A DNA stretch of 17,749 nucleotides. It comes from Brucellaceae bacterium. Lineage in GTDB: Bacteria > Pseudomonadota > Alphaproteobacteria > Rhizobiales > Rhizobiaceae. Position numbers and translations under genes: made by a program. Below the pieces are notes generated by a model. That model saw only the letters and a program-made list of their open reading frames with translations. It was not told the DNA's origin and made no database searches. Where the stretch lies: the NCBI GenBank assembly GCA_031253705.1, contig JAIRVW010000159.1, positions 1 through 17,749 of the forward strand, read 5' to 3'. Below, piece after piece: positions 318 through 4,869 of this stretch. The stretch's first letter is position 1. Each line of letters opens with the position of its first letter.

Positions 318-1079
318 TCAATAAATATCGAAGTCGAAATACTTCTTCATGATCTTGGCATAGGTGCCGTTTGCACGGATATCATCAATTGCCTTATTAA
401 ACTGGGCTTTCAGATCGTCATTGCCTTTTTTAAGGGCAATACCGGTTTCCGTCTGGGTGCCCGGCACATCTTCCAGAATATGACAGCAACTGCCGGCTTC
501 GGTTTTCAGCCAGTCAACCACAGGGAACTTGTCCGAAATCATCGCATCAAGACGGCCGGTTTTCAGATCGGCATTGGCTTCATCAGCGCTGACATAGAGT
601 TTAACATCCGCACCAGCTTTAGCCAAAACATCTTCCGCATAAATGGCCTGTGTTGTGCCGCCCTGCGCGCCGATTGTTTTGCCGGCGAAGCTTTCAGGTT
701 TTACATCTTTAATCGGGCTGTCTTTAGCCACAGCAACCGCAAGCGGTGTGGAATAATATTTATTGGTGAAGTCGATCTGTTTCAGACGTTCTTCGGTAAT
801 GCTCATGGATGCGATCACCGCATCGAATTTATTGGCCTGCAGTCCCGGAATCATACCGTCCCAGTCATTGGCCACGATGGTGCATTTTGCTTTCATTTCT
901 TCGCAAAGTGCATTGGCGATTTCAACGTCAAAACCCTTCAGCGTGCCGTCGGCGTCAACATAGTTGAACGGAGGATAAGCACCTTCGGTGGCAATGCGGA
1001 TTTCTTTCCAGTCTTTTGCACCCGCTGAAGTCGCGATTGCAGCCAGTACCAGACCGGCAAATAATACAGATTTACGCAT
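318..1079 (-). CDS. Amino-acid ABC transporter periplasmic substrate-binding protein (ArgT/HisJ type)
   Basis: The 253-residue precursor has a signal peptide (MRKSVLFAGLVLAAIATSAGA, likely cut after residue 21), so it acts in the periplasm. The mature part has the SBP_bac_3 signature: ATEGAYPPFNY (30-40), GFDVEIANALCEEM (49-62), the hinge-region DAVIASMSITEERLKQIDF (86-104) and AQGGTTQA (138-145). Cys59 and Cys66 sit like the disulfide of HisJ and LAO proteins; a Cys-Cys pair is at 198-199. This family binds lysine, arginine, ornithine or histidine and delivers them to an ABC permease. No permease or ATPase gene is in the window, so it either works with a transporter encoded elsewhere or with genes beyond the left edge. 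GGGAGG sits 4-5 bases before the ATG. The neighbouring lysine-dehydrogenase-like enzyme favours a basic amino acid as ligand; this is inference. Confidence 0.9.
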   Translation of the reverse strand: MRKSVLFAGLVLAAIATSAGAKDWKEIRIATEGAYPPFNYVDADGTLKGFDVEIANALCEEMKAKCTIVANDWDGMIPGLQANKFDAVIASMSITEERLKQIDFTNKYYSTPLAVAVAKDSPIKDVKPESFAGKTIGAQGGTTQAIYAEDVLAKAGADVKLYVSADEANADLKTGRLDAMISDKFPVVDWLKTEAGSCCHILEDVPGTQTETGIALKKGNDDLKAQFNKAIDDIRANGTYAKIMKKYFDFDIY

Positions 1080-1131
1080 AGTTTCCTCCCAGTGTACAAA
1101 TCTGATATTTCAGGCTGGCAGCTAAACAGAA

Positions 1132-2959: not shown

Positions 2960-3278
2960 TTTCTTTGCTATGCATAAATAATCTGAAAATCGCAGGTCAG
3001 GTTTGCATCTGATCTGCCTGCCTTTGCATGCGGCCTCTGCAAAAATGCAGGTCTCATCCGGATTTGAGGGTGATTGTGGCCGCTTCAGGGCTTCGCTGAG
3101 CGCTTTTCCGGCAATTTTTCTACTTAAAATGATGATTATGACAATTTAATGCCTGACGGAGCGTTTTCCCAATCCGAATAAGCAACGCTGCTATGCAAAT
3201 TTGTCTCTGCTCATTTCAGATCGTTCGGGCTATATACAACTCAACAAACAACGACATAAAATTTTCTAGGTGAGAAAC
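2960..3278. other. 319-bp intergenic region between the Lrp gene and the DUF1127 gene
   Basis: No coding frame is convincing. A 9-bp hairpin with one G-T pair (GCAGGTCAG at 2992-3000, CTGATCTGC at 3009-3017) lies 32 bp after the Lrp stop and may end that transcript, although no T-run follows. A smaller hairpin, CTGCA-AAAA-TGCAG, is at 3037-3050. TATATA at 3231-3236 is a possible -10 element for the DUF1127-small-RNA transcript. I could not find a confident -35 element, either of housekeeping type or of the RpoH type that drives the related Rhodobacter locus. Confidence 0.4.
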
Positions 3279-3425
3279 ATGAACCTGATCCGCTCTTACA
3301 ACAACTGGCGCCGTTACCGCAGCACAGTAAACGAACTGAACCGCCTCTCAACTCGCGAACTGAACGATCTCGGCATCCTGCCTGCAGAAATTCCGTTTGT
3401 AGCTCGCAAGGCAGCTCAGCGCTAA
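3279..3425 (+). CDS. DUF1127 small protein (YjiS/CcaF1-like)
   Basis: This is a 48-residue, strongly basic protein: MNLIRSYNNWRRYRSTVNEL continuing to a LSTRELNDLGILPAEIP core. The pattern Trp-Arg-Arg, then L-x-x-L-(S/D)-x-R-E-L-x-D-(L/I)-G-I/L, is the DUF1127 signature. AGGTGAG lies 5 bases before the ATG. In Rhodobacter sphaeroides a DUF1127 protein (CcaF1) is encoded just upstream of the CcsR small RNAs and acts as an RNA-binding factor in their maturation; small DUF1127 proteins in Agrobacterium affect phosphate and carbon metabolism. Here three CCTCC-loop hairpins start 16 bases after the stop codon, so the same relation is likely: one stress-induced transcript carrying both the protein and the small RNAs. 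The family is certain; the RNA-binding role is by analogy. Confidence 0.93.
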   Translation: MNLIRSYNNWRRYRSTVNELNRLSTRELNDLGILPAEIPFVARKAAQR

Positions 3426-3440
3426 TAGAATTCCCGAGAT

Positions 3441-3564
3441 ATCAAACCTGAGCCTCCCTCCTCCTCCCAACTCAGGTTTGATCGAAGACCGGTCTCCCTC
3501 CTCCCAACCGGTCATTCATTGTAACGCCCGATGCTCCTCCCAGCGTCGGGCGTTTACTTTTTTT
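3441..3564 (+). ncRNA. Array of three CCUCC-loop hairpins (CcsR/'cuckoo' small-RNA type)
   Basis: Three consecutive stem-loops lie right behind the DUF1127 gene. Hairpin 1: perfect 12-bp stem ATCAAACCTGAG/CTCAGGTTTGAT (3441-3452, 3471-3482), loop CCTCCCTCCTCCTCCCAA. Hairpin 2: 7-bp stem GACCGGT/ACCGGTC (3487-3493, 3507-3513), loop CTCCCTCCTCCCA. Hairpin 3: AACGCCCGA/TCGGGCGTT (3523-3531, 3546-3554), extended inward by a G-T pair and two G-C pairs, loop TCCTCCCA, then seven T. The stems share no sequence, whereas all loops carry TCCTCCCA. That contrast is the hallmark of the alphaproteobacterial cuckoo RNAs, whose loops act as anti-Shine-Dalgarno baits. In Rhodobacter these RNAs are co-transcribed with a DUF1127 gene under RpoH control and released by processing. 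The assignment rests on motif and context, not on a covariance-model search. Confidence 0.8.
3523..3564 (+). terminator. Terminator formed by the third small-RNA hairpin
   Basis: The third hairpin (3523-3531 with 3546-3554, inner pairs to 3534/3543) is GC-rich and is followed after TAC by TTTTTTT (3558-3564). This makes it a good rho-independent terminator for the DUF1127-small-RNA unit. The convergent DsrE gene stops at 3592, 28 bases away; read on its strand the same hairpin lacks a T-tract, so termination is mainly for the plus strand. Confidence 0.75.
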
Positions 3565-3591
3565 GTAAAATGCATAATCAGAAAAACATCT

Positions 3592-4026
3592 TTAAAAATG
3601 GATGTAGGCAAAGCCCTGCATTTGCAGATGCGCAAGTTCTGCAACACCGCTCGGCACAATATCCCGTTCTGAAACGCCGCAAAGATCATCCACGCTCAGA
3701 TTACGTGCCCGCATCGTATTGGCACAGACGAGAAAGCGAACGCCCTGTTCACGTAAAGCGTCATAACGGGTTCTCAGCGCCTCGTCATTTTCAACAATCG
3801 CAAACAAATCCAGCCCCGCCGCATGGCTGACAACATGGATTGTAAAATCCGGTTTTGATTCACATCCCGCAGATAATGCCTGCACATGATTGCTCAGGGA
3901 TGCCAGAAGCGCCGCCATATAGGCTTTTGTTTTGGGCGCAGACGCATTTATATATGCGCCGTTATTATGATAAACGACCCGCTGTTCCGTGGTCTGATAG
4001 CGATTTTGCGTCAGCGGGTCATTCAT
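3592..4026 (-). CDS. DsrE family protein
   Basis: This is a 144-residue soluble protein without a signal peptide. The first part, VVYHNNGAYINASAPKTKAYMAALLASLSNHVQAL, followed by FTIHVVSHAAGLDLFAIVEN, forms the Rossmann-like DsrE/DsrF fold. The end has the highly conserved GVRFLVCANTMRARNLS and DIVPSGVAELAHLQMQGFAYI segments typical of stand-alone DsrE-like proteins. The cysteine in FLVCANTM (about residue 102) is at the position used for sulfur or persulfide transfer in active DsrE/TusD proteins, so a thiol or sulfur-handling role is plausible but unproven. GGAG is 9 bases before the ATG. It sits 37 bp downstream of the L,D-transpeptidase gene on the same strand and may be co-transcribed with it. 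The proximity to dsbD and a DsbA-like gene makes a shared thiol theme possible. Confidence 0.8.
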   Translation of the reverse strand: MNDPLTQNRYQTTEQRVVYHNNGAYINASAPKTKAYMAALLASLSNHVQALSAGCESKPDFTIHVVSHAAGLDLFAIVENDEALRTRYDALREQGVRFLVCANTMRARNLSVDDLCGVSERDIVPSGVAELAHLQMQGFAYIHF

Positions 4027-4063: not shown

Positions 4064-4729
4064 TTAAAGAACGACGACTTTCGAGCCATTCGGAATACGG
4101 GTGTAAAGATCGATCACGTCCTGATTCATCATGCGGATACAGCCGGAAGACATAGCCTGACCGATCGTCCATGGCTCATTGGTGCCGTGAATACGGTATA
4201 ATGTGTCTTTGCCGTCTTTAAAGAGATAGAAAGCACGCGCACCCAGAGGATTCTTTTCGCCGCCTTCCATACCATTGGCCAGCGGCTCATAAAGATCAGG
4301 ATTACGACGGATCATGTCCGGTGTCGGACGCCAGCTCGGCCATTCGCGTTTATAGGCAATATTGGCGTTTCCGGTAAATTCCAGTCCGGCTTTGCCCACA
4401 CCCACGCCGTAACGCAGGGCTTTGCCGCCTTCCTGCACCAGATAAAGATATTTATTCTGCGGGTCGATGACCACAGTGCCCGGTGCTTCAACGGTCTGAT
4501 AATCAACCAGCTGACGCATATATTGCGGCTTCAGATGTTTCAGAGAGACTGCAGGCACGTTGAATTTTTCGCCCTCAACAGCTGCATAACGTGCAGCATC
4601 GGCCGGATGCACTTTCGGCGCGGTATCTTCTGCTACCGGCTGACCGGTTGTGGAACAAGCGGCCAGTAAAAGCGGCAGCGCGAGTGCCGCCAGAAATCCG
4701 CGCATGGAAGAAGCAGAATAAGTTTGCAT
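4064..4729 (-). CDS. L,D-transpeptidase lipoprotein (YkuD family)
   Basis: The 221-residue precursor carries a lipoprotein signal: positively charged start, LAALALPLLLAAC, with the lipobox LAAC and Cys25 as the lipidated residue. The YkuD domain spans about residues 80-221. It contains TVVIDPQNKYLYLVQ, REWPSWRPTP, NPLGARAFYLF, the catalytic His181 in RIHGTNEPW and the catalytic Cys197 in SSGCIRMMNQDV. Such enzymes cross-link peptidoglycan 3-3 or attach outer-membrane proteins such as beta-barrel proteins to peptidoglycan, as reported in Brucella and other Hyphomicrobiales. An in-frame ATG at 4852 would add 41 residues before the signal peptide, so the ATG at 4729 was chosen; the ATG at 4705 also fits. 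The gene lies 190 bp from the DsbA-like gene, with a terminator between them. Confidence 0.92.
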   Translation of the reverse strand: MQTYSASSMRGFLAALALPLLLAACSTTGQPVAEDTAPKVHPADAARYAAVEGEKFNVPAVSLKHLKPQYMRQLVDYQTVEAPGTVVIDPQNKYLYLVQEGGKALRYGVGVGKAGLEFTGNANIAYKREWPSWRPTPDMIRRNPDLYEPLANGMEGGEKNPLGARAFYLFKDGKDTLYRIHGTNEPWTIGQAMSSGCIRMMNQDVIDLYTRIPNGSKVVVL

Positions 4730-4869
4730 GAATATGATCTCATTTCCTGAGGGAAAGGGAGCGCACATATTCAGACAAACCGGCTGCTCAGAGCATAATG
4801 CGGCATGAAACTTCAGGTGCGCGGTGTTTCTGCAATGCTTATAACTTACCAAATGGTAAAAATTCCAGA

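What the first reader, a model, noticed from the sequence alone, without database searches (positions are those of the whole stretch)
3279..3564. DUF1127 gene followed by three TCCTCCCA-loop hairpins: a cuckoo/CcsR-type small-RNA locus
Seen: a 48-codon DUF1127 gene, then within 140 bases three stem-loops with unrelated stems but with TCCTCCCA in every loop, the last one ending in a T7 terminator. Known: CcsR1-4 in Rhodobacter sphaeroides have anti-SD-like CCUCCUCCC loops and lie downstream of the DUF1127 gene ccaF1 in a stress-induced transcript; cuckoo RNAs were predicted widely in Alphaproteobacteria. Inference: this is the same system with one motif loop per hairpin and three tandem copies, the first loop extended to CCTCCCTCCTCCTCCC. 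Such loci are usually missed by annotation.
Basis: partly seen in the sequence, partly recalled or inferred. Interest (0 to 1): 0.8.

Follow-up and report, generated by a model that had tools for sequence, protein, structure and literature searches.

The report
Small-protein gene with regulatory-RNA tail
A tiny bacterial gene is followed, apparently on the same transcript, by a three-hairpin regulatory RNA of a known family that mimics the ribosome's message-binding sequence; the kind is known, but its likely master switch links two stories that have been studied apart.

Summary
Window 3279-3425 is a 48-codon DUF1127 gene; from 15 nt past its stop, 3441-3554 forms three stem-loops with an anti-Shine-Dalgarno (aSD) motif at every loop, the last a terminator. 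The kind is known. Rfam scores 3437-3558 as ar14 (75.1 bits, cut-off 58.8), the NfeR1 family; CcsR1 scores 12.3 (cut-off 65.3). DUF1127 genes beside such RNAs are in print as the 'CIN1 locus'. In the window plus 40 chosen relatives the stems covary: 21 of 30 pairs changed on both sides, 0 of 500 shuffles. Further result: the gene has a match (12 of 15) to the published VtlR/LsrB box upstream; 80 of 80 named relatives score 11 or more, against 12 of 80 control stretches. The genome has a LysR gene beside an AbcR-type RNA. Best reading: VtlR/LsrB drives one transcript that yields a DUF1127 protein and, from its 3' end, an aSD RNA silencing transporter mRNAs. Binding, expression, processing and targets are inferred.

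The parts
3183..3197 (+). VtlR/LsrB-like box CAACGCTGCTATGCA
   Evidence: 12 of 15 matches to the published VtlR motif CAATGCAGCCATGCA (motif from PMC12595884 passages; sequence); one mismatch to GCAT-N3-TG-N3-T (box from PMC7486931 passages). At least 11 of 15 in 80 of 80 named loci, against 12 of 80 control stretches
3230..3235 (+). probable -10 element CTATAT of the shared promoter
   Evidence: NTATAT between -95 and -25 of the start codon in 76 of 80 named loci (CTATAT in 43), against 8 of 80 in a control stretch. The generic sigma-70 scan did not call it; it called one other site, 3233-3262, no more than chance (0.6 expected). Inferred
3279..3425 (+). 48-codon DUF1127 gene (ATG at 3279; SD-like TAGGTGAG at 3267-3274)
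   Evidence: PF06568, 54.7 bits; 100% identical protein in six named loci, 75-90% (best segment) in the other 74 of the 80 kept
3437..3558 (+). ar14 (NfeR1-family) small RNA, as matched by Rfam RF02344
   Evidence: 75.1 bits, cut-off 58.8, model positions 1-123 of 123
3441..3482 (+). hairpin 1: 12-bp stem, 18-nt loop CCTCCCTCCTCCTCCCAA (3453-3470)
   Evidence: fold; 9 of the 10 pairs counted in alignment A1 changed on both sides
3487..3513 (+). hairpin 2: 7 unbroken pairs (10 with a bulge in the fold), loop CTCCCTCCTCCCA (3494-3506)
   Evidence: fold; 5 of 9 counted pairs changed on both sides
3523..3554 (+). hairpin 3 / intrinsic terminator stem, loop CCTCCC (3536-3541)
   Evidence: fold, terminator scan; 7 of 11 counted pairs changed on both sides
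3558..3564 (+). T7 tail of the terminator
   Evidence: sequence, terminator scan
1080..1091 (-). possible target site: TGGGAGGA Shine-Dalgarno of the ABC substrate-binding-protein gene 318-1079 (-)
   Evidence: perfect complement of TCCTCCCA, ATG 4 nt downstream; loop duplex -14.9 to -15.8 kcal/mol; NOT conserved in the two relatives read

Best explanation
The locus is one transcription unit with two products. A LysR-type activator of the VtlR/LsrB kind binds the box at 3183-3197 and drives transcription from a promoter at about 3230. The mRNA encodes a 48-aa DUF1127 protein and ends in an ar14/NfeR1-family RNA: three stem-loops, each showing an anti-Shine-Dalgarno loop, the last one being the terminator. 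As free RNA after cleavage, or as the tail of the mRNA, the loops pair in trans with GGGAGGA-type Shine-Dalgarno sites, chiefly of mRNAs for ABC-transporter binding proteins, and block translation; three redundant loops sit on interchangeable stems. Shown here by computation: the gene, the RNA family, the structure, its conservation, the linkage of aSD arrays to short DUF1127 genes, and the box-like sequence. Inferred: VtlR binding, co-transcription, processing, and the target set.
For: Rfam ar14 above cut-off, full length. Fold z -7.45. Covariation in the window plus 40 chosen relatives: 95.3% of cells paired against 37.5-48.7% for slid structures, 21 of 30 pairs changed on both sides against 9.1 in shuffles. 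Of 80 named loci picked by the protein alone, 79 have 2 or more aSD hairpins within 450 nt of the stop; the finder asks only for CCTCC, yet 191 of 266 loops hold CCTCCTCCC, 49 TCCTCCC, 19 CCTCCC, 7 neither. Of 95 DUF1127 genes (94 from other genera of the family, one the window genome's paralogue), 32 have such an array, against 0 of 285 shuffles and 0 of 95 opposite strands; all 32 are among the 65 short genes (53 aa or less), none among the 30 long ones. Only 15 nt separate the stop from hairpin 1. VtlR-motif score of 12 or more upstream: 17 of 32 genes with an array, 6 of 63 without (p 6e-6); among short genes 17 of 32 against 6 of 33 (p 0.004); thresholds 11 and 13 point the same way. A 13 of 15 box before the S. 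meliloti sRNA SmelA075; TGCA-N5-GCAT before the window genome's solo ar14 copy. LsrB activates NfeR1 (passages of PMC10746234); VtlR activates three DUF1127 genes in Brucella (passages of PMC12595884). LysR gene beside an ar15/AbcR RNA with a 12 of 15 box in this genome. TGGGAGGA-N3-9-ATG: 35 sites in three genomes against 3 for the reversed pattern; 7 of 16 distinct genes behind them encode substrate-binding proteins against 1 of 21 for AAAGGAGA sites (Fisher p 0.012).
Against: No expression data. The window's box is only 12 of 15, with one mismatch to GCAT-N3-TG-N3-T. The published motif came from such promoters (DUF1127 genes in Brucella, abcR1/atu1667 in Agrobacterium), so its presence in close relatives is partly circular. 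Six boxed DUF1127 genes have no array within 450 nt and 15 genes with an array lack a box of 12. Real downstream sequence reaches a box score of 12 in 2.1% and 11 in 11.6% of cases, more than shuffles do (0.4% and 6.1%). Genes are related and two pairs of neighbours share an array, so the p-values overstate independence. 10 of 93 ar14 hits lie before a DUF1127 gene and 41 of 93 stand alone, so linkage is not needed for function. The rows of A1 were chosen as three-hairpin loci, so its 41 of 41 CCTCC loops are partly selection, and column identity does not set loops apart from stems in hairpins 1 and 2. The only TGGGAGGA-ATG site in the window is not conserved. Whole-RNA duplex energy with that site was not better than shuffles (18 of 300 as good). 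The small TAGGAGGA control gave one substrate-binding protein among 2 genes of 60 aa or more, and counting one more in the control raises p to 0.024.
Confidence: 0.75

Rival explanations
1. The ar14 RNA is made from its own promoter, inside the DUF1127 gene, as NfeR1 is from its own promoter; adjacency reflects shared ancestry of a locus, not co-transcription.
For: 41 of 93 ar14 hits stand alone and 10 precede the DUF1127 gene; in S. meliloti Ak57 two ar14 copies lie 0.6-0.9 kb before the first of two DUF1127 genes; NfeR1 has its own sigma-70 promoter (passages of PMC10746234).
Against: The consensus scan found no promoter-like site inside the window's DUF1127 gene; the NfeR1 promoter CTTAGAC-N15-19-CTATAT is nowhere in the window without mismatch; the box and CTATAT lie before the gene, and the gap to the hairpins is 15 nt.
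Confidence: 0.15
2. A CcsR-type locus proper: several separate sRNAs cut out by RNase E with the help of the DUF1127 protein, under RpoH control.
For: Same order of parts; CcsR1-4 come from the ccaF1 3' UTR and need RNase E and CcaF1 (passages of PMC8625941, and PMC10253847).
Against: CcsR1 model 12.3 bits, cut-off 65.3; the ar14 model fits all three hairpins as one RNA; a VtlR-like box lies upstream. Processing with the help of the DUF1127 protein is not excluded.
Confidence: 0.07
3. The hairpins only end and protect the DUF1127 mRNA, or bind the mRNA's own start region, and have no trans role.
For: Hairpin 3 is a terminator; 3' hairpins often protect mRNAs (established knowledge).
Against: A plain terminator needs no aSD loop, yet 79 of 80 loci chosen by protein have two or more while the stems change; loop pairing with the gene's own start is weak (-6.2 to -6.8 against -14.9 to -15.8 kcal/mol for the transporter site); solo copies exist.
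Confidence: 0.03

Closest known systems
ar14 family (Rfam RF02344), founding member NfeR1 of Sinorhizobium meliloti
   Same: Three hairpins with CCUCCUCCC-type loops, variable stems; full-length model match. Fits the description in PMC10746234 (passages) closely.
   Different: NfeR1 has its own promoter; this copy sits 15 nt behind a DUF1127 stop codon. Loop 1 is extended to 18 nt; hairpin 3 has the motif one base short.
CIN1 locus / cuckoo RNA family (Reinkensmeier and Giegerich 2015; known to me from its citation in PMC10253847; the paper itself is not held)
   Same: Short DUF1127 gene with CcsR-like aSD RNAs beside it in alphaproteobacteria.
   Different: Nothing that I could establish; their thermodynamic matchers were not run here.
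CcsR1-4 / CcaF1 of Rhodobacter sphaeroides
   Same: DUF1127 gene followed by aSD-loop RNAs in its 3' UTR (passages).
   Different: Four separate sRNAs under RpoHI/HII; CcsR1 model score far below cut-off here.
VtlR/LsrB targets: three DUF1127 genes of Brucella, atu1667 of Agrobacterium, NfeR1 and AbcR1 of S. meliloti (passages)
   Same: Box of the same kind upstream; LysR gene beside an AbcR-type RNA in this genome.
   Different: The window's own box is 12 of 15; binding is untested.

Membership tests
ar14 / NfeR1 (RF02344) | covariance-model score at or above the gathering score | tested here: met
   75.1 against 58.8 bits, model 1-123 of 123
ar14 / NfeR1 (RF02344) | three hairpins, each with the aSD motif CCUCCUCCC unpaired | tested here: met
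   three hairpins; full nine-base motif in loops 1 and 2, eight bases (CUCCUCCC) at hairpin 3, where the loop proper is CCUCCC
ar14 / NfeR1 (RF02344) | stems vary with pairing kept | tested here: met
   21 of 30 pairs changed on both sides in the window plus 40 chosen loci, 0 of 500 shuffles
ar14 / NfeR1 (RF02344) | own promoter CTTAGAC-N17-CTATAT directly upstream (reported for NfeR1 homologues; not part of the Rfam definition, so not taken as defining) | tested here: not met
   no exact match with N15-19 in the window; no promoter-like site called between 3263 and 3437; a CTATAT lies before the DUF1127 gene instead
ar14 / NfeR1 (RF02344) | stable transcript that silences mRNAs through the loops | not testable with these tools
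   needs RNA and reporter work
CIN1 locus | short DUF1127 gene beside CcsR-like aSD hairpins | tested here: met
   two or more aSD hairpins in 79 of 80 named relatives
CIN1 locus | match to the published thermodynamic matchers | not tested
   paper not held
CcsR | CcsR1 model (RF02791) at or above the gathering score | tested here: not met
   12.3 against 65.3 bits
CcsR | RpoHI/RpoHII promoter | not tested
   no RpoH model was run; a VtlR-like box was found
CcsR | maturation by RNase E with the DUF1127 protein | not testable with these tools
   needs RNA work
VtlR/LsrB regulon | binding motif upstream of the promoter | tested here: inconclusive
   12 of 15 at 3183-3197, above the usual chance level, but one mismatch to GCAT-N3-TG-N3-T
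VtlR/LsrB regulon | regulator present, next to an AbcR RNA | tested here: met
   301-aa LysR protein beside an ar15 match on G000:C393; orthology to VtlR by position and size only
VtlR/LsrB regulon | protein binding and dependence in vivo | not testable with these tools
   needs EMSA and a deletion strain

The most novel reading that the evidence does not exclude
The 'small proteins' switched on by VtlR/LsrB in the Rhizobiales are in fact dual transcripts, protein plus aSD RNA. One LysR regulator then commands a whole set of aSD RNAs (AbcR, solo NfeR1-like, and the tails of DUF1127 mRNAs with 3 to about 10 loops), which would explain how a regulator with very few direct targets changes hundreds of genes, many of them transporters.
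Probability: 0.45. Interest if true: 0.6.

Novelty: new member of a known kind. Interest (0 to 1): 0.4.

Why it matters
The element itself is a further member of a described family. What could matter is the join. The Agrobacterium VtlR paper leaves open whether atu1667 acts as a protein or as an RNA (PMC7486931 passages), and in the passages I saw the NfeR1 paper treats the solo RNA and does not name DUF1127 (PMC10746234). In the held library, two searches combining LsrB/VtlR, DUF1127 and cuckoo/CcsR/NfeR1 or aSD terms listed 15 and 6 papers; by their term counts none holds a VtlR/LsrB term together with DUF1127 and one of those RNA terms. One of them (PMC12501420) does mention the sRNAs behind ccaF1 in other words, and LsrB in a reference title (passages). 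If the transcripts are dual, deletions of these 'small-protein genes' may have removed or left behind an RNA unnoticed, and phenotypes would need re-reading. That is directly testable.

Tried and rejected
Considered and dropped: CcsR membership; ar7, the next-best Rfam match (21.7 bits, cut-off 60); autoregulation by loop pairing with the gene's own start (weak); a conserved local target, since the TGGGAGGA leader at 1084-1091 is absent in P. algeriensis and in L039. Whole-RNA duplex energy was uninformative (18 of 300 shuffles as good). A search for the 16S 3' end with a pattern recalled from memory found nothing in two genomes, so the comparison with the ribosome's own aSD (-10.2 kcal/mol) rests on a recalled tail. 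The TAGGAGGA control pattern gave only 5 sites in three genomes, of which 2 open a frame of 60 aa or more, one being a substrate-binding protein; it was replaced by AAAGGAGA (61 sites, reversed pattern 17).

Rows left out: for the contingency table I fetched 80 stretches from the list holding 95 DUF1127 genes in 30 genomes; matches in the six same-genus genomes and the window's own gene were left out, as were at least seven weaker listed matches of the family and all that one search did not list. The 32 genes with an array lie in 29 stretches, and two pairs of neighbours share one array. One search used Infernal's stricter filters, so weak ar14 matches may be missing. Of 41 solo ar14 hits I looked upstream of 11, six of them from different genera. 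Of 35 TGGGAGGA sites 30 were given as loci; 8 of these open frames under 60 aa and were dropped, and 22 collapse to 16 genes by eye. Of 61 AAAGGAGA sites 30 were given, 4 dropped, 26 collapse to 21 genes. Alignment A1 is the window plus 40 of the 80 named loci, chosen by me as three-hairpin loci without most near-duplicates; in the window's own hairpin 1 (and L037, L039) the alignment register is off by a two-base length difference, so part of those cells count as unpaired.

Full report
What is there. Window 3279-3425 (+) is a 48-codon gene that matches DUF1127 (PF06568). Its stop is followed after 15 nt by three stem-loops at 3441-3482, 3487-3513 and 3523-3554, with a T7 run at 3558-3564. The fold is far better than chance (z -7.45, 0 of 200 shuffles), and the TCCTCCCA word is over-represented (4 in the window against 0.30 expected).

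What it is. Rfam matches 3437-3558 as ar14, RF02344, at 75.1 bits against a cut-off of 58.8, over all 123 model positions. In a permissive scan of 3200-3700 the CcsR1 family gets 12.3 bits (cut-off 65.3) and ar7 21.7 (cut-off 60). The ar14 family is described as three hairpins, each with an ultraconserved CCUCCUCCC aSD motif unpaired, on stems that differ highly (passages of PMC10746234). The founding member, NfeR1, occurs in six copies in S. meliloti (passages of PMC7143759). [quoted passage not shown] DUF1127 genes beside CcsR-like RNAs are in print as the CIN1 locus (passages of PMC10253847; the source paper is not held). So this is a new member of a known kind.

Where it comes from. The closest named relatives are Pseudochrobactrum: six loci have an identical DUF1127 protein, four of them titled Pseudochrobactrum, one Rhizobiales bacterium and one Bacillus subtilis. 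Four Pseudochrobactrum records in the plasmid collection carry it on replicons of 433-464 kb; in P. algeriensis the gene order is substrate-binding protein, saccharopine dehydrogenase, Lrp/AsnC, DUF1127, (ar14), DsrE, DsbA, DsbD. The window's genome is a 62% complete assembly of 454 contigs. It holds four ar14 matches: the window, a solo copy on C419 (76.4 bits) and two below the cut-off (42 and 30.5 bits) behind a second DUF1127 gene on C121.

Conservation. I looked past the stop codon of the DUF1127 gene in the 80 named loci that one search kept (of 191 relatives). 79 of 80 have two or more aSD hairpins within 450 nt: 5 have two, 46 three, 25 four, 1 five, 2 six; one has a single hairpin. 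The finder asks for CCTCC; 259 of 266 loops go further and hold CCTCCTCCC (191), TCCTCCC (49) or CCTCCC (19). For A1, the window plus 40 of these loci chosen as three-hairpin loci, 95.3% of cells pair, 21 of 30 pairs show a change on both sides and none of 500 shuffles reaches these values; slid structures pair 37.5-48.7% of cells. All 41 rows keep CCTCC in all three loops, which is partly a result of that choice. Column identity by itself does not set loops apart from stems in hairpins 1 and 2 (loop 0.79 against stem 0.79; 0.93 against 0.91), and only slightly in hairpin 3 (0.93 against 0.87). The argument therefore rests on covariation and on the repeated motif in an otherwise unselected set.

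Linkage beyond close relatives. In 37 family genomes (own and same genus included), 93 ar14 hits pass the cut-off; 42 lie within 700 nt behind a same-strand DUF1127 match, 10 lie before one, and 41 stand alone (the DUF1127 list was cut, so some solo hits may be linked). Of 95 DUF1127 genes fetched (94 outside the genus and the C121 paralogue), 32 have an array of two or more aSD hairpins; two pairs of neighbours share one. Letter-shuffled regions gave 0 of 285 and the opposite strand 0 of 95. All 32 are among the 65 short genes (53 aa or less), none among the 30 long ones. Two genes are followed by ten hairpins.

The switch. Upstream of the window's gene lies CAACGCTGCTATGCA (3183-3197), 12 of 15 to the VtlR motif printed for Brucella (PMC12595884 passages), then CTATAT at 3230. 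All 80 named loci score 11 or more, 79 of them at -91 to -131 from the start codon; control stretches reach 11 or more in 12 of 80. NTATAT follows at -95 to -25 in 76 of 80, against 8 of 80 in a control stretch. In the family set, a score of 12 or more goes with an array: 17 of 32 against 6 of 63 (p 6e-6), and among short genes 17 of 32 against 6 of 33 (p 0.004); thresholds 11 and 13 point the same way. Letter shuffles reach 12 in 0.4%, real downstream sequence in 2.1%. These rows are related, and the motif was drawn from genes of this type, so the strength is overstated. More independent is S. meliloti: there LsrB, the VtlR counterpart, activates NfeR1 through TGCA-N6-GCAT (PMC10746234 passages), and I find a 13 of 15 box about 45 nt before the start of SmelA075, a stress-induced processed aSD RNA. 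The solo copy on C419 has TGCA-N5-GCAT 67 nt before the ar14 match; TGCA-N4-6-GCAT turns up in 12 of 2200 shuffles. Of six solo loci from different genera, five have a box of 11 or more, one of these far off at -143; the sixth, L019, reaches 10 (11 of 41 solo hits were looked at). The genome has a 301-aa LysR gene beside an ar15/AbcR RNA with a 12 of 15 box, the neighbourhood described for VtlR and AbcR (passages).

Targets. TCCTCCC loops would pair with GGGAGGA. TGGGAGGA-N3-9-ATG occurs 35 times in three Pseudochrobactrum-type genomes, the reversed pattern 3 times. Among the 30 sites given as loci, those that open a frame of 60 aa or more belong to 16 distinct genes, of which 7 encode ABC substrate-binding proteins (Pfam); the AAAGGAGA control gives 1 of 21 (Fisher p 0.012). 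A smaller TAGGAGGA control gave 1 of 2. NfeR1's two validated targets also encode such proteins (PMC8844928 passages). One of the window genome's six sites is the gene at 318-1079 (-) in this very window, but the two relatives read have another leader there, so it is no conserved target. AbcR carries CUCCUCCC too, so target sets will overlap.

Mechanism, with likelihood. I hold at 0.75 that VtlR/LsrB drives one transcript giving a DUF1127 protein and an ar14 aSD RNA that represses transporter mRNAs in trans. Shown by computation: gene, RNA family, structure, conservation, linkage, box-like sequence. Inferred: binding, co-transcription, cleavage, targets. What the DUF1127 protein does is open: RNA binding is reported for CcaF1, binding to PhoR in Agrobacterium (PMC12501420 passages and abstract).

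Novelty. Element: a new member of a known kind. The join of the VtlR/LsrB story with DUF1127-linked aSD arrays was not found in the two library searches made for it, but the key 2015 and 2021 papers could not be read, so I do not claim priority.

Noticed in passing
L003/L126 (G000:C121, about 1380-2000 of the contig): The genome's second DUF1127 locus is followed by hairpins (five or six read by eye, four by the finder) whose loops have drifted (CCTCCTCCC, TTCCTCCC, TTCCCTA, CCCCCC and others); ar14 scores are only 42 and 30.5 bits. It looks like decay or re-targeting of a paralogue.
   Followed up: partly
L133 (G033:C45) and L153 (G026:C23): Arrays of ten aSD hairpins behind one DUF1127 gene; L110 and L113 have six, apparently a doubled triplet.
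   Followed up: no
window 4064-4852 (-): A YkuD L,D-transpeptidase gene lies between DsrE and DsbA here but gave no match in L034-L039 and is absent from that place in the P. algeriensis gene table.
   Followed up: partly
window 1080-1120 (-): The leader of the substrate-binding-protein gene, Shine-Dalgarno included, differs from that of L039 though the proteins are 94% identical.
   Followed up: partly
L259 (S. meliloti pSymA 1220634-1220648): A VtlR/LsrB-like box (13 of 15) stands before the stress-induced aSD RNA SmelA075.
   Followed up: partly
L035 and L058: Records titled Bacillus subtilis and Xylophilus hold Brucellaceae-type DUF1127-ar14 loci, so the records look mislabelled or contaminated.
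   Followed up: no
L261 (S. meliloti Ak57, record coordinates about 1819122-1819522): Two tandem ar14 copies precede two DUF1127 genes between tig and trmFO, the reverse order of the window's arrangement.
   Followed up: partly
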